Shown here: positions 3,939-55,873 of the stretch, piece after piece | Numbering within the stretch: the first letter of the stretch is position 1 | How the letters are laid out: every line of letters begins with the position of its first letter | Origin: a virus | IMG/VR virus record: IMGVR_UViG_3300048999_000258 | Coordinates: 1 to 57,536 of that record | Strand: one strand, 5' to 3' | DNA: 57,536 nucleotides | The notes under the pieces: generated by a model | What the model saw: only the letters and a program-made list of their open reading frames with translations | What the model was told of the DNA's origin: nothing | Database searches by the model: none | Translations under genes and position numbers: made by a program

Positions 3939-5408
3939 TTATCCGTTGTTGTACGCCTGTGCTGGAAGGGACCCTACGTTACAAAATAATACGTTTCTGT
4001 TGGGCGCGTATAATTTAAAGCATAGATATGACAGGAGCAAGAATGGTAATGTTGTGCCCGCAATAGGAAGAGGCACTCTCAAGAGTGGACACAATAATTT
4101 TGCACCTATAGATTCAGGCGTCATAGTTAGTGCGAACCCATATCCAGTTCCAGGTATCGTTTTATTATAATCAACGATAGTGTTTTCGCTGATCATAGGT
4201 ATACCGTTCGCCGGGTTGCTGTTCGGCACCCGTATGGTGCGCCGTTGTGATCCGATAGCACCATTCTTAGGTGTCCTGTAAATTTCATACCACTCTACTG
4301 GGTTCGACCCTGGTGCAGGCGTCACGCCGAACTGGATTACCTGACCAGCCGTCAACGCAATAGCGCTCGTGCTGACCTGCACAGGAGCAGATTTGCCGGC
4401 AGAGTTGCATGCAATGACCCACACATAGTAATTGCCGGCATCGCTTCCTGCAAAAAGACTGTTTGCTTGCGCAGGCGTTGTCGCTTGTGTGCTGATGACA
4501 GGTGCCAGCGGTATTCCCTGTGACGAACCGACCTGCGTGAGCGGCATTAGTCCGCCATCGTCCATGAAAGGATTACCATGGAGGTTGGCAATGCCGCCTT
4601 CAATCTCAATCCCTTTCACAACTTGGCTGACGATGCCATCACTGCTGCGTGCATACGGGTCAACGCGCTGTACCGGGATGAAGGCACGCTGAATATCTGA
4701 ACGAACACGTGTACCAAACATGAAGTCGGTAATTTGTCCGTAGTTGGGCGCCGAGTGCACGACCGTGGCAGCGTTAATCAGCATATCTTGCGTCACGGGG
4801 CCACCGCGGCAGTCAATGATGTTCTCGGCGTTGGATTTCATCTCGATTTGAGTCTTGAAGCCGTCGGTCTGTAAAGCAGACAAACGTGAGTCAGACGTCA
4901 ACGCTGCCATCTCCAAGCGACGCAACATAGCCATTGTGCCGGCCAGGGTAGCCAATGCGATCGGCTCGCTGGTCAGCGTGCGCTGCAAGCTAAGCTGATG
5001 CGTTACGCCCTTCTGAATACCGATGAACTTAACGGCATCAATTCGGCGGATATAGGTCTCGTCGTCGGGTGCGGGAGCCCCACCTTCTGCGAAGAAACCT
5101 CCCTCAGGGTTTTGGCTGTAGCTAGAAATCTCAGCGTGCTGGTCAACAGCTGAGAACGTAGGCATCTTGGGCAGCAAAGGCCAAAGCTTAATGTCTTTGG
5201 CTTTGTAGGTGTTGACCTTGAGGGTCTCCTCAAGTGACTCAGTACGAATCGGAGACATATCGCCGGGCGTCGCAACGTTGGGGTTGTAAACGTTGTAGCC
5301 GCCGGTATCGGCTTTGGATAACGCGTTAGACCTCTGAAATTCAGCAACGGCTTCAGCACTAGGTGCTGCCGCCATGTTGCCAATCATCTGATGTGTGTAA
5401 ATCGACAT
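3939..5408 (-). CDS. Major capsid protein (with Ig/FN3-like C-terminal insertion)
   Basis: A 489-aa protein. Residues 1-290 resemble the HK97-fold capsid proteins of SPO1-like and large myoviruses: an N-terminal arm, then EGGAP followed by ETYIRR and VKFIGIQKGVTHQLS, then a helical segment with paired basic residues. Residues about 300-415 read as an immunoglobulin/fibronectin-III-like domain (NYYVWVIACNSAGKS, VEWYEIYRTP), often displayed on the capsid surface. The hydrophobic C-terminus returns to the capsid core. The SD AAGGA precedes the ATG. It is the last gene of the leftward head module, directly after the scaffold and protease genes, the usual order. Confidence 0.85.
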   Translation of the reverse strand: MSIYTHQMIGNMAAAPSAEAVAEFQRSNALSKADTGGYNVYNPNVATPGDMSPIRTESLEETLKVNTYKAKDIKLWPLLPKMPTFSAVDQHAEISSYSQNPEGGFFAEGGAPAPDDETYIRRIDAVKFIGIQKGVTHQLSLQRTLTSEPIALATLAGTMAMLRRLEMAALTSDSRLSALQTDGFKTQIEMKSNAENIIDCRGGPVTQDMLINAATVVHSAPNYGQITDFMFGTRVRSDIQRAFIPVQRVDPYARSSDGIVSQVVKGIEIEGGIANLHGNPFMDDGGLMPLTQVGSSQGIPLAPVISTQATTPAQANSLFAGSDAGNYYVWVIACNSAGKSAPVQVSTSAIALTAGQVIQFGVTPAPGSNPVEWYEIYRTPKNGAIGSQRRTIRVPNSNPANGIPMISENTIVDYNKTIPGTGYGFALTMTPESIGAKLLCPLLRVPLPIAGTTLPFLLLSYLCFKLYAPNRNVLFCNVGSLPAQAYNNG

Positions 5409-7715: not shown

Positions 7716-7922
7716 CTATCGCTTTATGCGGATAACGTGGCTATGGGTGGGCGCAAGCGGCACCTGGTCAGACAGCTGTAGCGGCAGCGTCACATCTGCC
7801 TTACACCAATAGCAACGGCTTTGGCAGCGCTCACCGTCAAAGATGACCGGCCCGTCGGTCCGTATCCGCGTCTGTGAGCCGCTCTTCTGTAGCAGCTTTT
7901 CTCTGCAATGGGGGCACTTCAT
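7716..7922 (-). CDS. Small zinc-ribbon protein
   Basis: A 68-aa protein with two Cys pairs, CPHC near the N-terminus and CQSRCYWC in the middle, likely to bind one zinc ion. Its ATG overlaps the stop of the upstream minor head protein gene by 4 bases (ATGA), so it is probably translated by coupling. Function unknown. It is somewhat reminiscent of the Com-type zinc-finger proteins of Mu-like phages, but the match is not firm. About 230 bases without a gene separate it from the protease. Confidence 0.6.
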   Translation of the reverse strand: MKCPHCREKLLQKSGSQTRIRTDGPVIFDGERCQSRCYWCKADVTLPLQLSDQVPLAPTHSHVIRIKR

Positions 7923-24690: not shown

Positions 24691-24733
24691 GCAAGCAAAA
24701 ATAGCAAGCAAAAGGGGGCCATTTCGCTTTTGC
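24691..24733. promoter_or_regulatory. Direct and inverted repeats in a divergent intergenic region
   Basis: GCAAGCAAAA occurs twice, 13 bases apart (24691 and 24704). The second copy also forms an inverted repeat GCAAAAG...CTTTTGC (24708-24733). This is the arrangement of an operator or attenuator-like hairpin between the minus-strand gene at 24639 and the plus-strand gene at 24868. Which protein might bind is unknown; the small RHH-like gene nearby and the Xre genes downstream are candidates. Confidence 0.35.
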
Positions 24734-24867
24734 GTCTTCAATGCGCGTGGCAGCCCCGATGGTTGGCCTGCCTCCCAATTATGTTTGACTACGTTTGCCC
24801 GAAAAGTTTCGTGGCCCTAGAATCGGCTTGCAGGCTGCGCCCACAACAAACAAGGATAGAGCTGACT

Positions 24868-27054
24868 ATGGCGAAAAAATCACGCGATGACGTGTCCGAC
24901 GCAACGGCCACCGATACGATAGATGCAACTGACACAATCGATACAGATGCAGCGCCCGTGGACCCCGCAACGCCGACCGAAGAAGGCGCTGCGGGCGTCA
25001 CATTGGTAAATGACAGCAGCGCCGCAGACGGCAGCGGCTTGCAGACCACCACAGACCCATCAAACCCCGAGCAGACGGTGGTCGCAGGTGATGACGGCCA
25101 GCCCGTGGTGGGCACGGACGGCAGCCCCATCCAGGTGTCTGACGCAGGCGTGCCGGTGACCGATGCGCCAAGCGGCGACGGCAGCGTCGTAGCAAGCCCT
25201 GTGACGGGTGAGCCTGTCATAGACAGCGGGGATAACACTATCGCCGTCGCGGACGATGGCTCGGTGCCCACCGTGACGGACACGGATGGCGCAACACAGG
25301 TTGTCGCAGACCCAGCCAATCCAAGCCAGCCCATTAGCGTGGACGGCGCAACCGTGCCTGTCGCGGCCCCTAGCGATGCATCCGACACAACGGATAACAC
25401 CTCGGGAAACGACGACGCTGCGCCTGTCAACGCGGGCACTGTGGCCATCGATGCGCCCTCCGGCGCGTCGAGCAATGCCAGCGGTGCGGTTACTACGGAC
25501 TCGTCTGCCAGCACGCCCGATGCTGGCTCTGACCCGGTCGTGGCCGCCCCTGAAGCGGGTGACGCCGACGCCAACCCTACCTCGGATGCCCAAAATGCGC
25601 CTGTGGCATCCAGCCCATCTTCTTCGGACACCACGTCCACGTCGGATGGCTCTGGCACTGTCAGCGATGTAGCTGGTGCTCAAGGCAATACGGTTGATGC
25701 AGGCGAAAGCGATGCAGAGCCAAACCCAGATGAGCAAGACCCGGACGAGGCGGGAAACTTCGACGATACATCGTCGCAGCAAGCAGCTGGCTCGGATACG
25801 GGTGCGGATGACTCTTCATCATCAGACAATTCGTCATCGGATGCACAACCCGGAGATGGCTCGGCGGCCCCCGCCCAAGGCAACGCAGGCATCGGCGCAT
25901 TGCCAGACCCGCTGACCGGCACAGGTTCAGTTGACGCTTCGGGCGGCGGCTCAGTGGACGCGGCGGGCACCACTGTCATTGGCACACCGGCGGATAACAC
26001 GGGCGCTGGCAACGTGCCTGGCGCACCCGTGGATGGCAGCGGCACAGGCGCGGTCATTCAGGGCCAGGGCGCAGACCCAAACCAGACAGGCTCAATATCC
26101 ACGGCGCAGCCAGCGCAGACGGTTAATGGCATTGACTCAAGCGGCTCTGCCGGCGTGACGGTCGCAGCCAATCCCGCGCCTGTTGACCCGACCGCATCGG
26201 CAGGCATCGGTGCGGCAAGCCCTGCCCAACCAGCGCCGATTACCAATCCGGTCTCAGGTGACGGCACGGAACTCAACGGTGGCGTGGCTGCGGTCTCAAA
26301 TGACCCGCAGGACCCAAGTACAGCCACAGGGCTAGCTGACGGAGCAATCAGCACAGACGCTGGCTCAACAGCCAGTGTGCCATCAAGCCCGACTGACGCT
26401 CAGGACGGCAATGGTGACGCATCCTCAGTGACACCTACTGCACCGGCGGCTACGGATGACAGCGGCAGCACAGGTGCAGATGCGTCCGTGCCCAGCGCAC
26501 CCGCCCAGCCTGTAGAAGATGGCTCGGACGCGAGCGCACCAGCTGCGCCGTCTGCACCTAGTGTACCTGCGCAGGCGCCGGGGTTGAGCGACATTTTGGC
26601 GGACGTCAAAACTAAGCTCATCGCTGACCTCAACGCCGGCGTCGATAGTGTTGAGCAGACATTGGGTGATTCGTTTAGCAAGATGGAGGCAGATATCGTC
26701 GCTGACCTGCAGGCTGCAGAAGGCAAGGGCATCGACGAGGTGCAGGCATCGGTTGACGCGGGGTTGGATGACACGGGCGTATTGGGCCCGCTCGCAGGCG
26801 CCATCAAGGATGCGGCGGACAAGTTCTTCGGTGAGGCCAAGACCACCGTGCAGGGCCTGACCGCAGCGCTGCCTGATAAGGCTGTGCAAAACCTGAAGGT
26901 GTCTGCTGCCACCGCCATGGAGGCGCTTAAGCATCTAGGGCAGACGGACGTCTCCTCGATGTCTAGCCGTGAGAAAGAGCTTCTGGAGAAACTGAAGTCG
27001 TCTGTGGCTAGCATCGCTGAACACGGACTCGCGTTCTTCCACCTGAAGGGCTAA
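24868..27054 (+). CDS. Very acidic low-complexity protein with helical C-terminal domain
   Basis: A 728-aa protein. Residues 1 to about 580 are dominated by Asp, Ser, Ala, Gly, Pro, Thr and Val, with loose repeats of the types DPSNPEQTVV, DPANPSQPIS and GDGS. They lack Cys and aromatic residues almost completely and are surely disordered. Residues about 590-728 are helical (LSDILADVKTKLIADLNAG; KELLEKLKSSVASIAEHGL). ATG 24868 was chosen over upstream TTG starts. The 143-aa protein that follows resembles the C-terminal domain in composition. Function unknown; a virion surface or adhesin-like protein is possible. Confidence 0.6.
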   Translation: MAKKSRDDVSDATATDTIDATDTIDTDAAPVDPATPTEEGAAGVTLVNDSSAADGSGLQTTTDPSNPEQTVVAGDDGQPVVGTDGSPIQVSDAGVPVTDAPSGDGSVVASPVTGEPVIDSGDNTIAVADDGSVPTVTDTDGATQVVADPANPSQPISVDGATVPVAAPSDASDTTDNTSGNDDAAPVNAGTVAIDAPSGASSNASGAVTTDSSASTPDAGSDPVVAAPEAGDADANPTSDAQNAPVASSPSSSDTTSTSDGSGTVSDVAGAQGNTVDAGESDAEPNPDEQDPDEAGNFDDTSSQQAAGSDTGADDSSSSDNSSSDAQPGDGSAAPAQGNAGIGALPDPLTGTGSVDASGGGSVDAAGTTVIGTPADNTGAGNVPGAPVDGSGTGAVIQGQGADPNQTGSISTAQPAQTVNGIDSSGSAGVTVAANPAPVDPTASAGIGAASPAQPAPITNPVSGDGTELNGGVAAVSNDPQDPSTATGLADGAISTDAGSTASVPSSPTDAQDGNGDASSVTPTAPAATDDSGSTGADASVPSAPAQPVEDGSDASAPAAPSAPSVPAQAPGLSDILADVKTKLIADLNAGVDSVEQTLGDSFSKMEADIVADLQAAEGKGIDEVQASVDAGLDDTGVLGPLAGAIKDAADKFFGEAKTTVQGLTAALPDKAVQNLKVSAATAMEALKHLGQTDVSSMSSREKELLEKLKSSVASIAEHGLAFFHLKG

Positions 27055-28646: not shown

Positions 28647-28671
28647 TACCTCCCGGCCCTAAAGGGCCAGG
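28647..28671. repeat. Subterminal palindrome, right end of tnpB-only element
   Basis: A 25-base sequence containing the palindrome GGCCCT-AA-AGGGCC, identical to the copy at 29767-29791 near the left end. On the minus strand it would form the hairpin at the 3' end of the tnpB-associated RNA. Confidence 0.75.
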
Positions 28672-29702
28672 ATTCCCTCTACAGGACGCTCGCATCCGAG
28701 CGCGAGAATGTTGCGGGCCGCGTTAATATCACGGTCGTGTCCCTGTCCACAATTACTGCAGACCCATTCCCTTATTCCAAGCTGCGCGATACCTCTCGGC
28801 CTCGACTCGGGCAGGCTGCCACAAGCCGAACACAACTGGGACGAATATGCTTCGTTGACTTCTCGGTATGTTACGCCTTTCGCAATCGACTTGTAGCGCA
28901 ACATATTCTTTAGCAGACCCCACCCAGCATCGTAGACGGACTTTGCCATCTTTGTTTTGCCTAGGTTTTTGCTGCTGACGTCACCAACGACCACCACTTG
29001 ATTGTCTCGCACAAGCTGGGTGGACAGCTTATGCAGGCCGTCTAAACGGCGGTTCTTAGCTTTGGCGTGCAGCGCTTTGACCCGCTTTTTTTTGTGGGCG
29101 CGCTGCGCTTTGCCGAGCGACTCCTCGACTGCGCGGTAGGCACGCAGGCCATCATATTTTTGGCCGTCAGACATCGTGGCTGTTGTTTTAAGCCCTAAAT
29201 CGATGCCGACTTGTTTGTCCGGGCAGACCCAAGCAAAACTTACATCAACGCACAAGTTAATGTACCAGTGACCACGAGCGTCCTGGGAAAACGACCCGCA
29301 TTTGATTTTGCCAAAGACTGGCCGACTCAGCCACACACGGTAGACGTGTCCGCGAAACTTAAAGCCATCGTCAAGTTGCCTGATGCCACGAGCTTTGAAC
29401 GGCACCCATCCAAGTGCTCGTTTGCCGCGGTAGCGAAGCCAGCGCTTCTTGTGCTGAATGCGCGACTGCGCGTACTGTTCACAAACGGCTTGAATTGTCT
29501 CAGCGCCGAGATCCATTTCTTCGCAGCCGCCACTGGCCAAATTGTTGAGGTCAAACGCACGGAGCCACGGCCGACCATTGCGCACGGCCTGGCGCTGCAG
29601 GTCATTGCACCAGTTGAAAACTTGATTTACATCGAAAGCAGCTTTTTCCAGTTTTTTGCGGCTGGCTTTGCCTTTGACGCGATATCGTAAAACCTGCAAC
29701 AT
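28659..29702 (-). CDS. tnpB: TnpB, RNA-guided nuclease family (IS200/IS605)
   Basis: A 347-aa protein. It has the TnpB order: an N-terminal wedge-like region, then RuvC-I with VGIDLGLKTT, RuvC-II region VVVVGDVSSKNLGKTKMAKS, a zinc ribbon CSACG...CSNCG and RuvC-III HDRDINAARN. Where most TnpBs have Glu in V.xEDL, this has Gly (VVGDV). A glutamate is present in REVNEAYSSQ just before the zinc ribbon, a possible relocated catalytic residue. Ends a short distance before the right-end palindrome. Confidence 0.85.
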   Translation of the reverse strand: MLQVLRYRVKGKASRKKLEKAAFDVNQVFNWCNDLQRQAVRNGRPWLRAFDLNNLASGGCEEMDLGAETIQAVCEQYAQSRIQHKKRWLRYRGKRALGWVPFKARGIRQLDDGFKFRGHVYRVWLSRPVFGKIKCGSFSQDARGHWYINLCVDVSFAWVCPDKQVGIDLGLKTTATMSDGQKYDGLRAYRAVEESLGKAQRAHKKKRVKALHAKAKNRRLDGLHKLSTQLVRDNQVVVVGDVSSKNLGKTKMAKSVYDAGWGLLKNMLRYKSIAKGVTYREVNEAYSSQLCSACGSLPESRPRGIAQLGIREWVCSNCGQGHDRDINAARNILALGCERPVEGILAL

Positions 29703-29766
29703 GCCCTGACATACACCGGAGGTCTGACAAATGGCTAGCTATTGTACGGGCTTCGCCCGTGCCCTC

Positions 29767-29791
29767 TACCTCCCGGCCCTAAAGGGCCAGG
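29767..29791. repeat. Subterminal palindrome, left end of tnpB-only element
   Basis: Identical over 25 bases to the copy at 28647-28671. A second small palindrome, GTACGGGC-TTC-GCCCGTGC, lies just before it at about 29753-29770 on the side of tnpB. Confidence 0.7.
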
Positions 29792-29807
29792 TTTCACGGG
29801 CTTTTGG

Positions 29808-29939
29808 ATGAATCTTAACCTCAGCTATTGGGACGCCAAAACGTTGCATGAGGCACTGACCAAGGCATTGGAAGCTCCTGGTCCGAAAGGTGAGACGTCT
29901 TACTTGAAATTCGGCGACGACGAAAACACGACTACTTAA
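29808..29939 (+). CDS. Hypothetical 43-aa protein
   Basis: A short ORF between the two insertion elements (ATG 29808), helical in the middle (WDAKTLHEALTKALEAPG). No clear SD; upstream sequence was probably replaced by the insertion. It may be the remains of a gene or a leftover 3' part. About 70 bases without a gene follow before the next element. Confidence 0.3.
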   Translation: MNLNLSYWDAKTLHEALTKALEAPGPKGETSYLKFGDDENTTT

Positions 29940-30016
29940 GCGCAACACTCATCAAGGAAGGTTAGATATTGATACCTCTCGGCTTCTGGCCTGATGCAGA
30001 CACCTACATTTGACTA

Positions 30017-30042
30017 CTCCCCACGGCTGAAGCCGGGGGATT
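30017..30042. repeat. Right-end imperfect palindrome of IS200/IS605 element
   Basis: CTCCCCACGGCT-GA-AGCCGGGGG hairpin followed by ATT. It matches the palindrome at 31537-31562 in layout and many positions, as expected for the subterminal hairpins recognised by a Y1 transposase. Confidence 0.7.
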
Positions 30043-30055
30043 CCCCGGAGTCCGC

Positions 30056-31108
30056 TCATGATTGGGCTCCTGCTTCCAGGCTCTCTAGTCCGAGAGCGGC
30101 AATATATTTCGCAGCGTTGATGTCACGGTCGTGAAAGATCCCGCATGAACACTGCCATTGCCTTACGCCAAGACCTGCGAAACCTTTCGGCCCCTCTCTG
30201 CTAAAGCAAAGAGAACAGGTCTGGGTTGAATATGCCTCGTTGACCTCTAAATACACAACTCGATGCCTTTTGGCTTTATACGCGAGCTGTGTTCTCAACG
30301 ATGACCAGCCAGCATCAAGTACGGATTTCGCCATACTCGTTTTTGCTAAGCCGCTCGCGTTGACGTTGCCAACAAATACAGCTTCGTGCGATTGCACTAA
30401 CTGTGTCGAAAGTTTGTGAAGATGGTCATGGCGCTGCGCTTTGACCTTTGCATGTATTTTCTTGACTTGTCTCTTCTTATGCGCTCTTTGCGCGATGCCT
30501 AGGCGCGCTTCTGCTGCACGATAAAGGCGTGGATGAGAAATCTTCTGACCTTCGCTCGTCACCGCTAAATCTTTTAAACCGAGGTCAATACCAACAACGC
30601 CCTTTCCTGTGCCCTGCGCTTCTTCGATGTTGACTGGCAAGTTGATGTACCAACGTCCGCGACTATCTTGGGTAAAAGACCCAGCACAAAAAGTTTGACC
30701 ATCTTGCAATTTGCGACTGACCCACGCTTTGTATTTCCTGCCCCGGAAGGTAAAAACGCCATTTCTGTAGACGACATGCCCCTTATTAAAAGGTACCCAT
30801 CCGAGAGAGCGCTTTGACGACTTAGGATTCGACACGCGCCAGCGTAGCCAAGGCTTATTTTTTGCTGAGCGGCTTTTGTCGTATACCTGGCAAACCTGTT
30901 GTATGGTATGTGCGTGTACATCGAGTTCTTTGCTGCTGCCTGCCGTTAATTTTTGCAAGTCATGCCAAGAAAGCCATCGACGTCTTGATTTGACAGCTTT
31001 CTGCTGCGTTTCGTTACAATAATTCCAAATAAAATTGACGACCTTTGATTGGCGTACAAGTTCGCTATCGCACGTATCCCTCAATCTGAACCTAAAAGTT
31101 ATTTGCAT
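30056..31108 (-). CDS. tnpB: TnpB, RNA-guided nuclease family (IS200/IS605)
   Basis: A 350-aa relative of the TnpB at 28659-29702. It has RuvC-I VGIDLGLKDLA, RuvC-II region AVFVGNVNASGLAKTSMAKS, zinc ribbon CSLC...CSCG and RuvC-III HDRDINAAKY. As in its neighbour, Gly replaces the usual RuvC-II Glu, and LEVNEAYSTQ supplies an alternative Glu. Its start overlaps the end of tnpA by 10 bases. The two proteins are clearly related but diverged throughout, so they came from separate insertions rather than a recent duplication. Confidence 0.85.
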   Translation of the reverse strand: MQITFRFRLRDTCDSELVRQSKVVNFIWNYCNETQQKAVKSRRRWLSWHDLQKLTAGSSKELDVHAHTIQQVCQVYDKSRSAKNKPWLRWRVSNPKSSKRSLGWVPFNKGHVVYRNGVFTFRGRKYKAWVSRKLQDGQTFCAGSFTQDSRGRWYINLPVNIEEAQGTGKGVVGIDLGLKDLAVTSEGQKISHPRLYRAAEARLGIAQRAHKKRQVKKIHAKVKAQRHDHLHKLSTQLVQSHEAVFVGNVNASGLAKTSMAKSVLDAGWSSLRTQLAYKAKRHRVVYLEVNEAYSTQTCSLCFSREGPKGFAGLGVRQWQCSCGIFHDRDINAAKYIAALGLESLEAGAQS

Positions 31109-31491
31109 TTTTGTTGCTCTATGTACTTCTTAACAACTGCGAGCGGCGCACCACCGACTGTTGCTACGAAATAACTGTTTGTCCAGAGAGTGGGTACACG
31201 GGTTTTTAGCAGTCTAAATTCTGCCCGTAAAAGTCGCGAAGACCTACCTTTAATTGCTTTTACCAAGCGATGGATCCCGAACTGCGGGTCGCAGTCCACG
31301 AGCAAATGAAAGTGGTCTCCATCAGCTTCCATCTCAGCAATTGTTGCTTTTTTCTCAAATGCCACCTGACTGGCTATTTCTTTGAGCCGCCGCTCGACGC
31401 CGTCGAAAGACAGAAGCTTGCGCCTATACTTGACGCACCATACGACATGGTAGGTGCATCTGTAGACGACGTTGAGATTAGAGCGAATCAT
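31099..31491 (-). CDS. tnpA: TnpA, Y1 (HUH) transposase of IS200/IS605
   Basis: A 130-aa protein, the normal length. The HUH motif is HFHLLVDC (His-Phe-His), preceded by EMEADGD; the catalytic Tyr is in VVKKYIEQQ near the C-terminus; VVWCVKYRR near the N-terminus is also typical. ATG 31491 was chosen; the frame is open further to 31539. It cuts and joins single-stranded element ends and may mobilise the neighbouring tnpB-only element too. Confidence 0.88.
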   Translation of the reverse strand: MIRSNLNVVYRCTYHVVWCVKYRRKLLSFDGVERRLKEIASQVAFEKKATIAEMEADGDHFHLLVDCDPQFGIHRLVKAIKGRSSRLLRAEFRLLKTRVPTLWTNSYFVATVGGAPLAVVKKYIEQQKCK

Positions 31492-31536
31492 AGAGCTGTT
31501 ATACAGGCCTGCGCAAAATAAAGCAACACCTAGGCT

Positions 31537-31562
31537 CACCCCATAGCTAAAGCTAGGGGATT
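31537..31562. repeat. Left-end imperfect palindrome of IS200/IS605 element
   Basis: CACCCCATAGCT-AA-AGCTAGGGG hairpin followed by ATT; partner of the palindrome at 30017-30042. Confidence 0.7.
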
Positions 31563-31691
31563 GCGCCTAGCAGATGTTCAGTCAAGCGACTTTTTGTGCC
31601 AGACGGTGAAGCCCACTGAGGCGTATATTTGACCCCCTGTTCAGCTTAGCCCACAATCCCGGGTATTAGTCCTATTCCGGGGGTTTTGCCT

Positions 31692-33320
31692 ATGAAAGCC
31701 ACGCTGTCTCACATCGGTGCCACGCTCTTGTCGCTGGTCACCAGTTGCGGCCACATCTCCGACGTCAACGTCACCGCAGGCGCCACAGAGCCCGCAGAAG
31801 CCGCTGATGGATCAGAGACAGGTGAAACCTTTACCCTTGGCGTAGCGCTGCATTTTCGCAACGAGGGCGCTCTCGACGCCTTGCTTGTCCGTCTTTACGA
31901 CCCCAAAAGCCCCGACTACGGCAAGTTTCTCACCCCTGATGAGTTCCAGACGCAATTTGGCCCCAAGCCCGAAGCCGTGGCCCGCGTGCGGCGCCATCTT
32001 GGTAGTCATGGCATGAGCGTGGCTGAAGCACCCCATGGCCAGTTCATCAAAGCCCGCGCCACCAAGGCACAGGCCGAGGCGGCATTTAAGACCACCGTCG
32101 TGGCTCACACTGCCCATGATGGGCGCAAAGAACGAGGCCTTGTGACAGCACCGAAGCTGCCCGCAGGCATCGCCGCCGTGCACAACCTCAAAACCCCGCC
32201 GCGCCGCCATCCGCAGATGCGCCGTGTCAGCGCCAACCCTGAGCCTTCAAACGTAGCGCCGCTTTCGGCCAAAGACATCCGCACCGTCTACAACGTGCCA
32301 GCGAACGTCAATTCCAAAGACCGCTACCTTGCCCTAGTCGAGCTAGACGGCTACGACCCCGCAGACGTCAAGGCCTACGCCAAGGCCAACAACATGGCCC
32401 TGCCGCCCATTACCAACGTCCTCGTCTCAGGCTTTGATGGCAATGTCATAGACCCTGATGCCCAGGTTGAGGTGACGATGGACATTGAGGTGATGGCGGC
32501 GATGGCCGGGCAGGCCAAAGAAATCCTCGTGTATGAGACAAGCCAGCAGCAGGGCACCTTGCTGGGCCTGTTTAACGAAATCGCCAACCCCAGCTTGGGC
32601 GCCAAGAAAATGCCGCACGTCATCAGCTGCTCTTGGGGCGCGCCTGAGGGCGAGATGACAGCCAGCGACGCCAAAGCTGAGGCCATGGTGTTCAAGCAGA
32701 TGGCGGCCCAAGGCCAGACGGTGTTTGCTGCCTCAGGCGATTCGGGCGCCAATGACGACGGCCATACGCTAGGCACCGACGACCCAGCCAGCCAGCCCTA
32801 CGTGGTCGCTGTCGGCGGCACGACGCTGAGCAGCCACGCTGGCGCATACATCTCTGAAAGCGCCTGGTACGACGGCCAGGGCGGCGGAGGCGGCGGCGTC
32901 TCTCGTTTTTGGTCTATGCCCATCTGGCAGCAAGGTATTGCTGGCACGGCAAGCAAAGCGTCACTTAGCAAGCGCAACGTGCCAGACGTCGCACTCAATG
33001 CTGACCCGCAGACAGGCTACAACGTCTACGTCTCAGGGCAGTGGATGACTGTCGGCGGCACCAGCTGCGCGGCACCTATCTGGGCGGCATTTATGGGCAT
33101 CGTCAACACGCAGCGCCTGAGCAAAAAGTTGCCAGACATAGGCTTTTTGTCGCCGACCTTATACCGAATTGGCTCCGGCGTCGGCGGCGCGGCAGCCTTT
33201 CATGACATCGCAGACAACTCTACTAACGGCTATTATCCTGCGGTATCGGGCTTTGATGATGCGACGGGCTGGGGGTCTATGGACGGGGCAAAATTCTTGC
33301 AGCTGTTTACGGCAAAATAG
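31692..33320 (+). CDS. Sedolisin (peptidase family S53) with lipobox signal
   Basis: A 542-aa protein with all features of a complete sedolisin. A short signal ends in the lipobox-like LVTSC (Cys19). A pro-domain spans about 45-165 (GVALHFRNEGALDALL; PDYGKFLTPDEF). The catalytic residues are Glu260 and Asp264 in QVEVTMDIEV, oxyanion Asp350 in AASGDSG, and Ser458 in GGTSCAAP. The calcium site is FHDIAD...GFDDATGWG near the C-terminus. Sedolisins are acid-active serine proteases, usually secreted. Cleavage of the pro-domain is expected. In phages this is uncommon; lysis, envelope or host-surface attack are possible roles. Confidence 0.9.
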   Translation: MKATLSHIGATLLSLVTSCGHISDVNVTAGATEPAEAADGSETGETFTLGVALHFRNEGALDALLVRLYDPKSPDYGKFLTPDEFQTQFGPKPEAVARVRRHLGSHGMSVAEAPHGQFIKARATKAQAEAAFKTTVVAHTAHDGRKERGLVTAPKLPAGIAAVHNLKTPPRRHPQMRRVSANPEPSNVAPLSAKDIRTVYNVPANVNSKDRYLALVELDGYDPADVKAYAKANNMALPPITNVLVSGFDGNVIDPDAQVEVTMDIEVMAAMAGQAKEILVYETSQQQGTLLGLFNEIANPSLGAKKMPHVISCSWGAPEGEMTASDAKAEAMVFKQMAAQGQTVFAASGDSGANDDGHTLGTDDPASQPYVVAVGGTTLSSHAGAYISESAWYDGQGGGGGGVSRFWSMPIWQQGIAGTASKASLSKRNVPDVALNADPQTGYNVYVSGQWMTVGGTSCAAPIWAAFMGIVNTQRLSKKLPDIGFLSPTLYRIGSGVGGAAAFHDIADNSTNGYYPAVSGFDDATGWGSMDGAKFLQLFTAK

Positions 33321-34148: not shown

Positions 34149-34718
34149 ATGCCCGACGCGACACCCGAAGACACGACACCGCGCGCCCCTGGCGGCCTGC
34201 TTGAGATGGGCCACCCCAATGAGCTACGCGGCGCCCCTGGCGGCCTGCTTGAGATGGGCCACCTCAATGAGCTACGCGCTGAGATTGAGGCGACACAACG
34301 CGCCGTGCAAGAGGCGCCCTTTACGGCAGGTCCGCCGCCTGCAGCGCCCGGCCAAGACCCGCGTGAAAAAAAGCTCTACAGCTTCGACATTGAATACAAA
34401 GGTGCGCGCGGGCAAATCACAAAGGGCCGCTTCACCAACAAAATCCTCTCCATCGGCGAGAAGATATCCGTCGGCACCATGCGCGCTCGGCTGCAAATGG
34501 GCGTCTCTTTAGATGCGATGGACGTCGATACGTACAACATGCTGTTTCGTGTGACCTGGTTGCAGCAGTCGCTGACCGAAAAGCCCAAGTGGGCCGAAGA
34601 CCTTTTGGCGCTAGAAAGTGAGGGACTCATCAAAGACATCTTCGACAAGGTGGACGCGCATGAGCGCTACTTTCGCGGCGAGGCCCCAGGTGCTGCGGCG
34701 GGCCAAAGAGCGATTTGA
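34149..34718 (+). CDS. Tail assembly chaperone-like protein
   Basis: A 189-aa protein just upstream of the tape measure, the usual place of tail assembly chaperones. Its central part (KKLYSFDIEYKGARGQITKG; MGVSLDAMDVDTYNML) is a beta-helix mix. The N-terminal part holds a perfect-looking 16-residue tandem duplication. ATG 34149 was chosen. The 3' end overlaps the next ORF by 59 bases in a different frame, the classical layout of a chaperone pair made by frameshifting. The family assignment is by position and layout. Confidence 0.6.
   Translation: MPDATPEDTTPRAPGGLLEMGHPNELRGAPGGLLEMGHLNELRAEIEATQRAVQEAPFTAGPPPAAPGQDPREKKLYSFDIEYKGARGQITKGRFTNKILSIGEKISVGTMRARLQMGVSLDAMDVDTYNMLFRVTWLQQSLTEKPKWAEDLLALESEGLIKDIFDKVDAHERYFRGEAPGAAAGQRAI
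34183..34278 (+). repeat. 48-bp tandem duplication in a coding region
   Basis: Two copies (34183-34230, 34231-34278) that differ at one base (CCC/CTC). Each encodes APGGLLEMGHxNELR plus one residue. The near identity shows a recent duplication that keeps the frame. Confidence 0.9.
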
Positions 34719-48652: not shown

Positions 48653-49146
48653 GCTGCCTCCTCGTTGGCTTTGGTTTGCGCTACGGCATTAGCCGCGCGT
48701 TCTTTAGCAACGTAATCGCGAATGGTCCTGACCTGATAGGCCGTGACCCCAAACCTGCGGGCTAGCTTCGTATTGGTGCCGATGTCATTGGCGACGCATA
48801 TCGTCAGCATGACCCGCGTCTCTGCGGGAAGCTTAGCAACAGACGCAGGGCAGTCAGGTAGCGTCATGCGCTGACGGCGTTTTTTGGCGATTTCTTTGCG
48901 GGTTACCATTTGCATATGCCCAAAAAAGACGCACATCGCATTGCCGCATTTCATGACGATGACGTCTTTGCTGCTGAGCGTCTCACCTGTGCATATCTCC
49001 CACACGATGCGAGACATAAGCATGGTTTTGCGCGCGTTAGACGCACGCCACACATGCAATGCCTGCCCTGTGGACGAGCGGGAAGCGTGAGGCCATATAT
49101 CGCAAGGTTTGCTCAGAGGGTCTGTGTTTGTGCTTTTTGCGCGCAT
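48637..49146 (-). CDS. HNH-like DNA-binding protein with altered active site
   Basis: About 169 aa. ATG 49146 has GGAG six bases upstream, so it was preferred to ATG 49158. Residues 30-95 resemble the HNH fold of phage homing endonucleases (MLMSRIVWEICTGETLSSKD, then MKCGNAMCVFFGHMQMVTRK), but the usual His before the first Cys is Lys in this reading, so nuclease activity is doubtful. The C-terminus has an HTH-like NTKLARRFGVTAYQVRTIR. It could be a regulator derived from a homing enzyme. Confidence 0.55.
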   Translation of the reverse strand: MRAKSTNTDPLSKPCDIWPHASRSSTGQALHVWRASNARKTMLMSRIVWEICTGETLSSKDVIVMKCGNAMCVFFGHMQMVTRKEIAKKRRQRMTLPDCPASVAKLPAETRVMLTICVANDIGTNTKLARRFGVTAYQVRTIRDYVAKERAANAVAQTKANEEAACKKG

Positions 49147-49248: not shown

Positions 49249-50004
49249 TTAGTTGGCGACGGTGTAGGACTCAGACTCTGCCTGCAGGACGCGCTGGCCT
49301 GGTTTGGCGTGAAAATCAACTGAAGGTGTAGACGATTGAAGCAAAAACTGGTCATCGCGCACGCCGAAGATTAGATTCTCGCCTTCGATGTGTGTGCTGC
49401 CCTTGGAGCTGACCGCGCCGCCCAGCTCAGCCGCCAAGCCCTCAAGCTCCTCGAGGTTAGCCGAAGCTGACAAGCTGTTTTCATGGTTGTAGACGACGGA
49501 ATATTGCGCATCTGCCATCAGGGCTGACTGAATCATGGTCAACTTGGCTTTGGTGTTTGCACGGCCCTCGATGGCTCGGCGGCAAGAAGGCGAGCGGTAG
49601 CGGACGTTGTCGTACATATCGACATCATTGAGTTCAAGCAGACGGGCATTGGACAGTTTGGCTGAAATCGAGCGGATGTTGCAGAATTTGCCCTTGAGGT
49701 GCGCCATGTGCAGAAAGTCTGTGCCGACGTCAAATTCCTGACCGTTGGCTTTTTGCACTTCCGTGCTGGTGGTCTTGGACTCAGACGCTTTATAGAATGG
49801 TCCGAGGCTTTGCTCTGCGGTGCAGATGACCTGAGCTGTGTAGGGCGCAACATCTTGCACCATGACAACAGTGCCGGGCATCAAAAACGTGTTGGGCGCA
49901 GCGACTGCGGCAAAGCCATACATGCGGACCATGGTGCTCATGGACGGGCAGGCGGTGCAGGAAAGAAACAAAGAAACCAAAGCAAAACGGATAGCGGTCT
50001 TCAT
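49249..50004 (-). CDS. Putative lipoprotein
   Basis: A 251-aa protein from ATG 50004. The first 20 residues (MKTAIRFALVSLFLSC) form a signal with a lipobox-like LFLSC, so it may be lipidated at Cys16. The mature part has several Cys residues (SCRRAIE; FCNIRS) and mixed structure. It may act in the envelope, for example in superinfection exclusion. It is read away from the iteron-like array just upstream. Confidence 0.6.
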   Translation of the reverse strand: MKTAIRFALVSLFLSCTACPSMSTMVRMYGFAAVAAPNTFLMPGTVVMVQDVAPYTAQVICTAEQSLGPFYKASESKTTSTEVQKANGQEFDVGTDFLHMAHLKGKFCNIRSISAKLSNARLLELNDVDMYDNVRYRSPSCRRAIEGRANTKAKLTMIQSALMADAQYSVVYNHENSLSASANLEELEGLAAELGGAVSSKGSTHIEGENLIFGVRDDQFLLQSSTPSVDFHAKPGQRVLQAESESYTVAN

Positions 50005-50025
50005 CAGTGTAATCCAATTTTCAGT

Positions 50026-50189
50026 GTGCTGCTCAGTGGGACTGCTTAGGGTGCTGCTATCGGGTGCTGCGTATCGTGCTGCTTTAGTGTCCTGCTTTAT
50101 CATGCTGCCTAATTGTGCTGCATATTTTTTGTATTCTATTGGTCGCGAACTGTGGGGCGATTCTTCTATTGTGCTGCTTATGTACTGCC
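50026..50189. repeat. Iteron-like array of GTGCTGCT, candidate replication origin
   Basis: Eight copies of RTGCTGCT-like octamers at 50026, 50039, 50051, 50064, 50076, 50089, 50102 and 50115, spaced 12 or 13 bases. Two more lie at 50171 and 50182, and one further copy at 50278. The spacing is not a multiple of three, so it is not a coding repeat. AT-rich sequence (CATATTTTTTGTATTC) lies between the blocks. Replication-type genes start about 350 bases downstream. An operator array for the lipoprotein is the alternative. Confidence 0.6.
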
Positions 50190-50548
50190 GTGTCCCCGCC
50201 AGCCCTCGATGAATTAACTATGCCCTAGGAAATTTTCTCTGGCAATTATTTTTATCTGGCGATTCTTGCTTAAAAGAATGCTGCTGGCGAGATATATGCA
50301 TTATAAGGTTTGCACAGGACTTATGTGAAGTTTTCCTTACATGCGACGGAATGGTCCGTTGTTGCAAGCAAGGCGCCCGGTCTGCCTGCCTCTAGCCAAT
50401 TCGCCGCTTGCGCGCTAGAGCCTGCTCACCAAAAAGCCCGTGGAGTCTGCCGCTTTGGGACCGGGAGGCATCAAGAGGAGCAGGCCCAAGCCAACTCAAC
50501 CGCAACACCCATGTCGTTTTCGTGTTGCTTTTTTGGCGCAGCGCCAGC
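50190..50548. other. Intergenic region without a supported gene
   Basis: About 360 bases between the iteron-like array and the first replication-type gene. The left part is AT-rich (AATTTTCTCT, AATTATTTTTATC) and could be a DNA-unwinding region. No ORF here has coding character or an SD. Frames that are open run out of phase with the replication gene. Confidence 0.5.
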
Positions 50549-51358
50549 ATGGCCGTTGGCATGGCTTCGGTACTTATCAATAAAAAGCTGCTGCGCGATG
50601 AACGACTCCTCATGCTCATGGAGGCTAGTAGCCGAGGCAGGGCAGAGCTAATAGGCATCCTTGCGCTCTTTTGGCTAGCCACGCGGGAGGACAACGTGCG
50701 GTTTATTATTCCCACGTCCATCAAGGCCTACCTGCCGCTCGCGCCCATTGAGGCGGAGGCCATGGGCGTCTACATGTTGCAGGCAGGCTACCTGATGCCT
50801 GAGGACGGCGGTGAGCGCTATCAAATCGTAGACAACGCGAAGGCTTTGTCCAACCGCGAGGCAAGGCAGGCGATTGCAAGAAAAGCAGGGCTTGCGTCGG
50901 CGGCAAAGCGGGCCAAAAAAAGCCGCAAGAAGCGGGTCGTCGCCGAAGCACCGCAGCCGCAGCAAGACATGGCGGTGCATGCCGCACCGGCCGCGCCCGC
51001 CGCGCCCGCCGCGCCTATTGCGCCATTGAACGTGCGTGCTTGGCAGGTCTACGCTGAAGCCTACCACTACCGTTGGGGCGCTATGCCCATCTCTAACGCC
51101 ACGGTGCGTGGCCAGATGGCGGCTATCGTCAAACGCATAGGTGAGCGCGCCATTGAGGTCATGCCCTTTTACGTGGCGCACAACGACAGCTATTACGTGC
51201 TCAAGCACCATCCGGTAGGGCTTGCGCTTAAAGATTGTGAATCGCTGGCCACGCAATGTGCTATGCACAGGCCCATCACATCACAGGATGTAAGGAGCGC
51301 AGAAAAAGAGTACGGTTACAAAAAGCAATTGGAAAACATTAGAGCAGGTCGAATCTGA
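50549..51358 (+). CDS. Phage replication protein (initiator-like)
   Basis: About 269 aa from ATG 50549 (ATG 50561 is an alternative). Residues 1-110 look like a winged-helix domain (LMEASSRGRAELIGILALFW). A basic stretch (AAKRAKKSRKKR) and a linker of PAAPAAPAAP follow. The C-terminal part has AWQVYAEAYHYRWGAMPISN and MPFYVAHNDSYYVLKHHPVG, features of phage replication initiators and helicase-loader-type proteins. Proximity to the iteron-like array fits an initiator. The exact class cannot be fixed. Confidence 0.6.
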   Translation: MAVGMASVLINKKLLRDERLLMLMEASSRGRAELIGILALFWLATREDNVRFIIPTSIKAYLPLAPIEAEAMGVYMLQAGYLMPEDGGERYQIVDNAKALSNREARQAIARKAGLASAAKRAKKSRKKRVVAEAPQPQQDMAVHAAPAAPAAPAAPIAPLNVRAWQVYAEAYHYRWGAMPISNATVRGQMAAIVKRIGERAIEVMPFYVAHNDSYYVLKHHPVGLALKDCESLATQCAMHRPITSQDVRSAEKEYGYKKQLENIRAGRI

Positions 51359-51379
51359 CATACTAGGGAGCGTTAAGTG

Positions 51380-52054
51380 ATGCGAGATGAAAAACCATCA
51401 AACATTTTGTTACGAGTGTGTGTCATGGCGTCAGAACGCTCACAGGTTATCCAAGAAGCTTTCTTGGAATTTGCCATCTACCTTGGTTGCCGTATCGAAG
51501 ATGTGCAGCTCAGAGAGTACACAAGGGAGATGCTAGAGGAAAACATTGCCACCGCAGATGTCGTGTACGCGTTGCAGCAAATCAGAAAACAACCCAACCG
51601 AAAGATGCGCGGCATCGCGTTGCCGGCGGAGGTAATACAATTTTTGCGTCCGCAGCTTAGCGATGATGATGTGGCAAACAGCATCGCCGCCAAGATTCAA
51701 TATTGCTACAAGCATTTTGGCTACAATAACGCGGATGCAGCCAAAGCGCACATGGGCGTGCAGGCCTGGCAGGTCGTGCATGAGTCTGGCGGCTGGGCGC
51801 AGATGTGTGCCGGCGCTACAGAGGAAGGCAAGCGCACAGAGTACGCCCAGCTGCGTGATTTGGCGCGCAGTGTGTTGCGGCGTGATGTGCAGACGCAGCG
51901 TATGGCGCAACTTGAGGCCAGGCGTTTACAGCCGGCTAGCATCTTAAGCGAGCCCAGGTTAACACCTGTGCAGATGGCAGAGAATCGGCGCCGGGCGGCT
52001 GAACTTGTCGGAAGCGTGTTTCGTCCGCATCCCAAAGCTCGCGTGCCGATTTAA
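51380..52054 (+). CDS. Replication-associated protein (possible helicase loader)
   Basis: A 224-aa protein 21 bases after the previous gene, with AGGGAG before the start (GTG 51377 and ATG 51380 adjoin). It is largely helical (EYTREMLEENIATADVVYAL; AAKIQYCYKHFGYNNADAAK). Position and helical plan resemble the second gene in phage replication pairs. Not firmly assigned. Confidence 0.5.
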   Translation: MRDEKPSNILLRVCVMASERSQVIQEAFLEFAIYLGCRIEDVQLREYTREMLEENIATADVVYALQQIRKQPNRKMRGIALPAEVIQFLRPQLSDDDVANSIAAKIQYCYKHFGYNNADAAKAHMGVQAWQVVHESGGWAQMCAGATEEGKRTEYAQLRDLARSVLRRDVQTQRMAQLEARRLQPASILSEPRLTPVQMAENRRRAAELVGSVFRPHPKARVPI

Positions 52055-52810: not shown

Positions 52811-53854
52811 ATGGCCGACAGCAACAGCGCAGCGTCTCCTTTTTGCGGCCGCCGCCTAAGCGCCCCGACGTTAATTGCCATGCCGCAGTCGGCGCTTGTA
52901 CAACCTGACCACCTGCGTCTTCCGTCCGCTTGCGCCAGCCCGCAGGGTGGCAGCTTCGGCCTTGTGCCAATCAGGCCCAAATCCGTACGTTTTCAATCAG
53001 ACCAGAGCCGCGAGACGCGCAGCAGCGGAGGTGATAACGCATCCCGCGTGCCGACGCCCTGGATTGGCGCGGCGACATCTCCCGGCGTGCAGGTAGACCC
53101 CGCTGCGGTCGACTACTTCAATGCCACGAGCGCTGAGCGCCACAGCTGGCGGGCCATGCAAAACCTTGGGCTTGTAGCCGTTGGCCGTTCGCTTCTGACC
53201 CTGGGCCTAGGTGGCGTGCTCGAGGGGTTTTCTCTGATGGCCATCAACGCTCAGGCGCCGCTGCGACCGGTCCCTGGTGCACCGCCTACCGCGCCTGGCC
53301 GACGAAGTGTTGAGATAGCTCATCCGGTCATCTTTGGCTTAGGCATGGCAGGGGCCGCGGTGGGATTAAGCATGCACGTGGCGGGCCTGGCGCGGTTTTA
53401 TAGCGATACCTCTAAGATTAAACGCCGCCGGGCCCAAATCGTGCTTGCCGCCGGTACAGCCGGGGCGGTGCTGGTGACAGTGGGCGGGTCGTATTATCTC
53501 TACGGCATCGTAGCCAAACGCGACACTATCTTGTGGGAGGCGCTGCCTTTGCGCTCAGTCGGCAATTTCCTAGTGTACGGCGCCATCCCTAATTCGTTTA
53601 GCGCGTCAGAGATGGTGCATGGGGATATTCCGCTGAAGAATCGTGTCTTGTTGCGAGACCTCTTCTTTGCGCTTGGGGGCATGTTTCTGATGACCTGGGC
53701 GCAGATATCGACGCCTGACCCGCCAGCGCCGCTGTGGGCGCGCGAGATTGCGCAGTGCTTGGGCATTATTTGCATAGCGATGGGTGGGGCGCTGCCGCGG
53801 GTTGATGGCATGCGGGCCCAGGCTCAACTGCGGGCGGGACAAAATAGTCAATAA
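52811..53854 (+). CDS. Multi-pass membrane protein
   Basis: A 347-aa protein. The first 100 residues are polar; then five or so hydrophobic segments follow, for example VAVGRSLLTLGLGGVLEGF, PVIFGLGMAGAAVGLSMHVA and IVLAAGTAGAVLVTVGGSYY. No transporter motif is seen. Its 3' end overlaps, on the opposite strand, the distal part of the methyltransferase remnant, so this gene or its 3' flank may have displaced the end of that gene. Start not supported by an SD. Confidence 0.5.
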   Translation: MADSNSAASPFCGRRLSAPTLIAMPQSALVQPDHLRLPSACASPQGGSFGLVPIRPKSVRFQSDQSRETRSSGGDNASRVPTPWIGAATSPGVQVDPAAVDYFNATSAERHSWRAMQNLGLVAVGRSLLTLGLGGVLEGFSLMAINAQAPLRPVPGAPPTAPGRRSVEIAHPVIFGLGMAGAAVGLSMHVAGLARFYSDTSKIKRRRAQIVLAAGTAGAVLVTVGGSYYLYGIVAKRDTILWEALPLRSVGNFLVYGAIPNSFSASEMVHGDIPLKNRVLLRDLFFALGGMFLMTWAQISTPDPPAPLWAREIAQCLGIICIAMGGALPRVDGMRAQAQLRAGQNSQ

Positions 53855-54289
53855 CCCCAACGATTGCGCTCGCGTACATCTTTTACAGCGTCGCGAAAGA
53901 ACAAACCGTGCAAAGCAGAACACCCGAGAAAAGCAGGTAGGCAATTCAAGAGGTCTGCGTTTGGCTGCATTTCCATTCGATGGGCAATGCTTTACCCACA
54001 CTAATTCATAGCGAAATGTTGCCAATGAAGACGTAACTAGAACTGATGAAAACGGTTGCCTGGCCATGCATAAGGTAGCAGCGTTTGACCTAGTGAGAGC
54101 ATCTGCGTTCCGCCAAAAAGGGCCCAATGAAACCTGGGTGTCCCACTCATTCTTCGTTATCCCATACGGCAAATCTGCGAACACAAAGTCTGCCTTCATG
54201 CCCTGGCTTGCCAAGCTAGGCATCACTTCCAAGCAATCTCCCAGGTGCAAATCCACGCGCAACGGCTCAGAGGCATCGGTCTCATCCAT
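53606..54289 (-). pseudogene. Truncated DNA methyltransferase
   Basis: The first 120 residues read as an amino (N4/N6) DNA methyltransferase: LGDCLEVMPSL near the N-terminus, the catalytic-type ADLPYGITKNEWD (DPPY-like, here DLPY) and ELVWVKHCPSNGNAAKRRPL. After KRRPL the family pattern stops; the remaining 100 residues are Arg/Cys-rich and look like out-of-frame translation overlapping the membrane gene on the other strand. The C-terminal catalytic region with the SAM-binding FxGxG motif is missing. Most likely an inactive remnant. Confidence 0.65.
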
Positions 54290-55057: not shown

Positions 55058-55873
55058 CTACTTTCCGAGAGTCTCAGCGTCTGCAAACATGCAGAGGTCG
55101 TTTTCAGGCTCTATCAAGGCCTGCGCCACCTCAGCGTCGCTTAATAAAGGCTTCAAATGGCCTTGGCGATTGTAAAAAAACCCGGACGGCACTTTTTGTA
55201 TGCGTCTGCCCAGCCGCCAGTGGGTACTTCCAGGCCTAGGGCCTGTCAGGCGGGCCCATTCTCCTAGGCTTCGCCTGCTAGAAGACTGGGTGATTACGCT
55301 TTTCTTAAGTGCGTGTAATTGCGGCGTAATTTCTCGGCGACGTGTTGCTCGGTGGCCACGTTTTTTAGCGCGATGCCGGCGCTGCGCCGACCTAAGCTGT
55401 GATAGGCGTGCCTGGTGGCGTGCCGCCGCTTCAGCTGTTGTTGGGTTGGCTTCGATGTAATGCTCAAAAGAAAAGGTGCTGGCATTGTTGAAGCAGGCTT
55501 TGCTTAGCGCCACCAAATCCAGCTCTTCCATCAACCGTAGATGTTTGCGGGCGGTGTAGGCTGACATGGACAGCTTCAGGTGCTGCATGATGGCCTTGCG
55601 AGAGCAGACGCTGCCAGTTTTTTGCGTGAACAAAAACGTGCCGCACAAATGCAGCGTTCGGTATAGCGCGCTGCGGGTAGCCGCATTGATGTCGGCGTTT
55701 TCTAGCTTGTCAATCGACGCCAGCGGTATAGCGAAGCAGTAAATTTGCTGTTTGCGCCCAGGATTGACTGCTCGGCGGTGCGTGTCAATGCGACTGGTGC
55801 GCATTGACGCAGGTTCCAAACGGCTGATTCCAGGAGCGTTTGCAGATGCGGGGATGAAAGATAATTTTTTCAC
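55058..55873 (-). CDS. Putative winged-HTH regulator or replication protein
   Basis: A 271-aa protein from GTG 55873 (ATG 55804 is an alternative). Residues 85-130 look like a winged-helix domain (CSRKAIMQHLKLSMSAYTAR KHLRLMEELDLV, split). The middle is very basic (RSAQRRHRAKKRGHRATRRR) and likely binds nucleic acid. First gene of a two-gene minus-strand unit, divergent from 55908. Confidence 0.5.
   Translation of the reverse strand: MKKLSFIPASANAPGISRLEPASMRTSRIDTHRRAVNPGRKQQIYCFAIPLASIDKLENADINAATRSALYRTLHLCGTFLFTQKTGSVCSRKAIMQHLKLSMSAYTARKHLRLMEELDLVALSKACFNNASTFSFEHYIEANPTTAEAAARHQARLSQLRSAQRRHRAKKRGHRATRRREITPQLHALKKSVITQSSSRRSLGEWARLTGPRPGSTHWRLGRRIQKVPSGFFYNRQGHLKPLLSDAEVAQALIEPENDLCMFADAETLGK

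What the first reader, a model, noticed from the sequence alone, without database searches (positions are those of the whole stretch)
50026..50189. Helically phased GTGCTGCT array beside replication genes
Eight octamers recur every 12-13 bases, then two more after an AT-rich gap. The period is near but above one helical turn and is not codon-based. It sits in a gene-poor region upstream of two replication-type genes and directly upstream of the lipoprotein. This looks like an iteron origin or a multi-site operator, and I do not recognise the motif as a known phage origin.
Basis: seen in the sequence. Interest (0 to 1): 0.7.

Follow-up and report, generated by a model that had tools for sequence, protein, structure and literature searches.

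The report
Noncoding repeat array, likely phage origin
A tight row of eight or nine copies of a short DNA word sits in a noncoding gap beside the replication-starter genes of an unclassified phage, and it is most likely the place where that starter protein opens the DNA, which in many of its relatives lies inside the starter gene instead.

Summary
The array is real. Eight GTGCTGCT-like octamers lie at 50026-50122 with spacing 13,12,13,12,13,13,13, plus a ninth at 50171. A tenth at 50182 is not supported. It is by far the strongest array in the contig. It is not helically phased: the 12.7-bp period winds around the helix. It lies in a 544-bp noncoding gap between a leftward lipoprotein-like gene and a rightward pair that I identify as a lambda-O-like initiator and a second gene in the position of lambda P. 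An AT-rich segment with two tandem 17-mers and the contig's best sigma-70-like promoter adjoin it. Two features are unlike lambda: the array is outside the O gene (in many O relatives an array lies inside it), and the repeat unit is short. The predicted O-like fold is a winged helix, basic helix, linker and conserved C-terminal domain. Best explanation: a relocated iteron-type origin. Binding is inferred, not shown. The main rivals are an operator, or a weak lambda-style array inside the O gene (p=0.012). Three full-length O/P relatives lack the array. GC skew is uninformative because it follows coding strand. Verdict: new variant of a known kind, moderate interest.

The parts
50026..50122 (+). 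main array: eight GTGCTGCT-like octamers, spacing 13,12,13,12,13,13,13 (second copy degenerate)
50171..50178 (+). ninth copy, exact, best weight-matrix score of all (leave-one-out 20.7)
50182..50189 (+). claimed tenth copy GTACTGCC; not supported by leave-one-out scoring
50123..50170 (.). gap between the two groups, 62% AT; its first 21 bases 81% AT
50212..50311 (.). AT-rich segment (66%), second most AT-rich and second least stable 100 bp of the contig; candidate unwinding element
50233..50266 (+). two tandem 17-mers TTTT(C/A)TCTGGC(A/G)ATT(A/C)T inside the AT-rich segment
50300..50329 (-). best sigma-70-like promoter of the contig (TTCACA-18-TATAAT, 11/12); reads left through the AT-rich segment and the array
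   Evidence: 0.1 such sites expected per shuffled contig
49249..50004 (-). lipoprotein-like gene (signal peptide with Cys), divergent from the replication genes; no family match
50549..51358 (+). lambda-O-like initiator: predicted N-terminal winged helix (12-93), basic long helix (94-133), linker, conserved C-terminal domain (160-265)
51377..52054 (+). second replication gene, in the position of lambda P (presumed helicase loader); relatives of it follow the O-like gene in L134, L135, L140
50859..50938 (+). weak lambda-style array inside the O-like gene: AGGCAAGGC, AAGCAGGGC, AAGCGGGCC, AAGCGGGTC, spacing 24, 23, 24; rival origin candidate
   Evidence: p=0.012 against synonymous shuffling
50522..50529 (+). 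isolated motif-like site GTGTTGCT 20 bp before the O-like start; possible autoregulatory site or chance

Best explanation
The array is the iteron part of the phage replication origin. Copies of the O-like initiator bind the GTGCTGCT units through their N-terminal winged helix and basic helix, side by side along 97 bp, and wrap or oligomerise on the DNA because successive sites wind around the helix. The strain opens the adjoining AT-rich DNA (50123-50143 or the tandem 17-mers at 50233-50266). The C-terminal domain then brings in the P-like protein with the host helicase. A leftward transcript from 50329-50300 runs through the AT-rich segment and the array and may help or tune opening, as transcription does in lambda. 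Shown here: the array, its uniqueness, the O-like gene and its conserved partner gene, the predicted fold, the AT-rich segment. Inferred: binding, opening, helicase loading, the role of transcription.
For: Array far beyond chance and confined to one place. The next rightward gene is an O-like initiator, homologous over residues about 160-265 to annotated phage replication O proteins and full length to three IMG/VR proteins that are also followed by the same second gene. Confident model (mean pLDDT 87.7) with an N-terminal winged helix; the DnaD N-terminal domain heads the weak Foldseek list, and a DnaD-NTD-like domain binds iterons in a noncoding origin in the satellite PLE and in RepA_N plasmids (PMC7145576). 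Residues 97-132 carry 13 Lys/Arg against one Glu. Repeats plus AT-rich DNA is the standard plan of lambda ori (PMC7466680) and PICI origins (PMC6092414). The AT-rich segment is among the least stable stretches of the contig. The array lies downstream of both predicted leftward promoters and overlaps neither, unlike an ordinary operator. 43 of 76 related O genes carry a significant in-gene array, so an origin within about 0.5 kb of this initiator is the expected arrangement.
Against: No binding or replication data. The three full-length relatives have only 85-116 bp upstream of O and no comparable array anywhere in the held sequence, one contig being 54.8 kb. None of 76 relatives has a comparable array within 1.2 kb upstream of O (best 28 against 53). 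The 12.7-bp spacing differs from the 17-24 bp of most lambda-type and plasmid iterons. The window's own O gene has a weak array at the usual in-gene position. GC skew gives no independent support.
Confidence: 0.52

Rival explanations
1. The array is a multi-site operator: a phage regulator (perhaps the O-like protein itself, or the 55058-55873 protein with a possible helix-turn-helix) coats it and controls the divergent lipoprotein and replication genes.
For: It lies in the divergent intergenic region. Direct-repeat arrays that are also operators exist, e.g. ParR, TubR and omega sites (PMC5016525). A single similar site lies 20 bp before the O start. The three relatives that lack the array still have O and P, as if it were an accessory element.
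Against: No predicted promoter overlaps the array; both predicted leftward promoters lie upstream of it. Eight to nine non-palindromic sites in one orientation is a lot for a simple operator. The promoter scan covers only sigma-70 types.
Confidence: 0.2
2. The real origin is a lambda-style array inside the O gene (50859-50938), and the upstream array has another job.
For: Four copies with spacing 24, 23, 24 at codon 103, where and how relatives carry theirs; p=0.012 against synonymous shuffling.
Against: Only about 7 of 9 bases match between neighbours, it lies in a Lys/Arg/Ala-rich helix with repetitive codons, its score (31) is low, and the flanks do not match. The three closest relatives have no significant in-gene array.
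Confidence: 0.12
3. The array is a partition centromere (parC/tubC-like) of a phage maintained as a plasmid.
For: parC and tubC are blocks of short direct repeats, can be split into two groups, and lie upstream of an operon (PMC5016525). TubR is among the weak fold matches of the O-like N-terminus (Z 5.0).
Against: No ParM, TubZ or ParA gene was recognised among the window proteins that were scanned. The gene beside it has an O-type C-terminal domain. The fold match is tied with many unrelated winged helices.
Confidence: 0.06
4. The repeats act in RNA, as part of the long 5' leader of the lipoprotein transcript, or are a slippage-born repeat without function.
For: The best promoter would place the array within a leader of about 290 nt.
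Against: Both strands fold worse than shuffled sequence (z +2.2 and +2.0); no Rfam match. Slippage gives near-identical units, as in L079, L117 and L221, whereas here the cores are kept while the spacers diverge.
Confidence: 0.1

Closest known systems
Phage lambda ori and O/P replicon (and Pseudomonas, Serratia, Erwinia and Klebsiella phages with O genes of this C-terminal family)
   Same: O-like initiator (C-terminal homology to the phage relatives), followed by a second replication gene, repeated sites plus AT-rich DNA, a leftward promoter nearby (lambda pO, PMC3985674).
   Different: Array is noncoding and about 440-520 bp upstream of the O-like gene instead of inside it; repeat period 12.7 bp instead of mostly 17-24 bp; N-terminal domain not matched by the HTH_36 model that two relatives match.
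Phage satellite origins (PICI pri-rep-ori; PLE RepA with noncoding iterons)
   Same: Noncoding short iterons in two groups with AT-rich DNA between; PLE RepA has a DnaD-NTD-like winged helix (PMC6092414, PMC7145576).
   Different: PICI origins lie 3' of the rep gene; here the candidate is 5' of an O-like gene, and the groups are very unequal (8 and 1-2).
Iteron plasmids (RK2, P1, F, R6K, pPS10)
   Same: Direct repeats beside AT-rich DNA next to an initiator gene with winged helix.
   Different: Their iterons are 17-22 bp long (PMC4980987); these are 8-bp cores every 12.7 bp. No Rep-family match.
ParR/parC and TubR/tubC centromeres
   Same: Short direct repeats in blocks, bound by small DNA-binding proteins that wrap.
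   Different: No partition NTPase recognised; the adjacent gene is O-like.

Membership tests
Lambda-type O/P replicon | Initiator with the C-terminal domain of phage O-like proteins | tested here: met
   tblastn E down to 9e-13 to phage O-like proteins; phrog_11527 E 1.9e-15
Lambda-type O/P replicon | O gene followed directly by a P-type helicase-loader gene | tested here: inconclusive
   The position is right and the gene is conserved with O in L134, L135, L140, but no significant match to known P proteins and only a weak phrog_1883 hit
Lambda-type O/P replicon | Iterons inside the O gene | tested here: inconclusive
   Only a weak in-gene array, p=0.012; the strong array is outside
Lambda-type O/P replicon | O protein binds the iterons and unwinds AT-rich DNA | not testable with these tools
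   needs biochemistry
Iteron origin in general | Cluster of direct repeats of one motif beside AT-rich DNA and near an initiator gene | tested here: met
Plasmid-type iteron origin | Repeat unit of 17-22 bp | tested here: not met
   period 12-13 bp; lengths from PMC4980987
RepA_N / DnaD-NTD initiators | N-terminal DnaD-like winged helix | tested here: inconclusive
   DnaD heads the Foldseek list but E is only 0.09-0.5; Z 4.8 tied with unrelated winged helices
[quoted passage not shown]
   second set has one supported copy; the array is 5' of the initiator gene
Type II/III partition centromere | Adjacent ParM/ParA/TubZ NTPase gene | tested here: inconclusive
   none recognised among the proteins scanned, but the contig may be incomplete and some ORFs were not scanned
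DnaA-box origin (host oriC type) | Cluster of TTATNCACA boxes | tested here: not met
   24 one-mismatch sites against 30 expected, no cluster and no exact box

The most novel reading that the evidence does not exclude
A lambda-O-type initiator that has exchanged its DNA-binding domain and with it moved its origin out of the gene: it binds a noncoding array of 8-bp cores every 12.7 bp that wind around the helix, making a filament-like complex unlike the lambda O-some.
Probability: 0.3. Interest if true: 0.6.

Novelty: new variant of a known kind. Interest (0 to 1): 0.42.

Why it matters
In lambda and many relatives the origin is locked inside the initiator gene, so protein linker and DNA sites must evolve together. 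A relative with a noncoding array would show how that lock is opened, and would give a small testable pair (269-aa protein, about 300 bp of DNA) for how initiators work on closely spaced sites that are not on one face of the helix. The survey also gives a simple rule, an array at codons about 75-195 of O, for finding origins in uncultured phages.

Tried and rejected
Helical phasing: rejected by the 12.7-bp spacing. GC skew as origin evidence: minimum at 49,068 but it follows the coding strand. DnaA boxes: none. RNA structure: worse than shuffled on both strands; no Rfam family and no tRNA. Motif searches of IMG/VR: the hits examined are 12-bp spaced repeats or slippage repeats (L079, L117, L221), with no O or P relative in those three. 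DNA similarity in phages: none. A single-sequence structure model was useless and replaced. The P-like protein has no solved relative by sequence. Families absent from the fold lists are not excluded.

Full report
What is there. The window is a whole 57,536-base virus record with no end repeats of 12 bases or more. It is distant from phages in the collections: the terminase and major head protein match only below 60% identity and the 49-52.6 kb DNA matches nothing. At 50026-50122 eight octamers close to GTGCTGCT follow each other at 13,12,13,12,13,13,13 bases; a ninth, exact copy lies at 50171. The tenth site claimed at 50182 fails leave-one-out scoring and the second (50039) is degenerate; the other eight are the eight best matrix hits in the contig. 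An unseeded search for spaced repeats finds nothing comparable in shuffled contigs or elsewhere in this one.

The period is not one helical turn. Relative to 10.5 bp per turn, sites at 0, 13, 25, 38, 50 and 63 walk once around the helix and return to the same face only after about five sites (63 bp, six turns). This would suit a wrapping or filament-like complex, not a one-face stack (inference).

Surroundings. The noncoding gap runs from 50005 to 50548. To its left a lipoprotein-like gene reads left (49249-50004). To its right are 50549-51358 and 51377-52054. Next to the array are an AT-rich segment at 50212-50311, second most AT-rich 100 bp of the contig, with two tandem 17-mers, and the best sigma-70-like promoter of the contig, on the minus strand at 50329-50300 (11 of 12, 0.1 expected). 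The promoter reads through the AT-rich segment and then the array, so the array would be in the leader and does not overlap the promoter.

The genes. The product of 50549-51358 shares its C-terminal 90-100 residues with phage replication O proteins. An alignment-based scan gave 80 loci; three, L134, L135 and L140, match over the whole length (27-34% best-segment identity) and carry a relative of the second gene next door. A 26-sequence alignment gave a confident model: winged helix 12-93, long helix 94-133 with a very basic stretch, linker, C-terminal helical domain. Fold matches of the N-terminal part are to generic winged helices, with DnaD among the first and TubR, MarR, IclR and ArsR types close behind or tied; this shows a fold class, not a family. 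The second gene sits where lambda has P, but I found no significant match to P proteins, so helicase loading is inferred from position.

Where relatives keep their origins. In lambda the iterons and AT-rich tract lie in the middle of O (PMC7466680). I tested 76 distinct related O genes (the window's included) against synonymous-codon shuffles: 43 have a significant in-gene array (at most 1 of 100 shuffles as good), at codons 74-195, searched at 16-26 bp spacing and mostly 17-24 bp. None of 76 loci has an upstream array near the strength of this one (best 28 against 53). The window thus differs from the common plan. Its O gene does hold a weak array at the usual place, p=0.012, which I keep as a rival. 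L134, L135 and L140 have neither a significant in-gene array nor one beside O; where they start replication is unknown, and this is the main evidence against a simple reading.

How it most likely works. I favour an iteron-type origin bound by the O-like protein, with opening in the adjacent AT-rich DNA and handover to the second gene's product and host helicase; leftward transcription may tune it, as pO does in lambda (PMC3985674). Noncoding iterons bound by a DnaD-NTD-like domain are known in the satellite PLE (PMC7145576), and split iteron origins in PICIs (PMC6092414), so each element has precedent; the combination with an O-type C-terminal domain is what I have not found described, in a limited open-access library. 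Binding, opening and loading are inferred.

What does not help. GC skew has its minimum at 49,068, near the array, but fourfold-site skew is negative on the coding strand in most genes whichever way they point, including the IS genes, so the minimum mainly marks a change of gene direction.

Verdict. A real and unusual array, most likely an origin (0.52), possibly an operator (0.20); a new variant of a known kind.

Noticed in passing
7919-10864 (-): Large head-protein-like gene (981 aa) interrupted by an intein: Pfam Intein_splicing and Hint_2 match between about residues 257 and 662.
   Followed up: partly
28659-31539 (-): IS200/IS605-type unit with one Y1 transposase (31099-31539) and two different TnpB genes (28659-29702, 30056-31108).
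   Followed up: partly
31686-33320 (+): Subtilase-type protease with a pro-kumamolisin activation domain in a phage contig, directly beside the IS200/IS605 unit.
   Followed up: partly
3939-5408 (-): Major head protein most similar to those of SPO1-like Bacillus phages (28-30% identity), although the O-like gene points to phages of Gram-negative hosts.
   Followed up: partly
24730-27054 (+): 774-aa Asp/Ala/Ser/Gly-rich low-complexity protein with no family match.
   Followed up: no
53606-54289 (-): DNA-methyltransferase-like N-terminal part followed by unrelated-looking basic sequence; may be truncated or frameshifted.
   Followed up: no
34183-34278 (+): 48-bp tandem duplication (2 copies, 97%) near the start of the 34092-34718 gene.
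   Followed up: no
L137, L139, L142, L145, L198: Some related O genes carry 12-bp spaced in-gene arrays (5-7 copies) in the linker instead of 22-23 bp ones, so a short period may not be unique to the window; not tested against synonymous shuffles at this spacing.
   Followed up: partly
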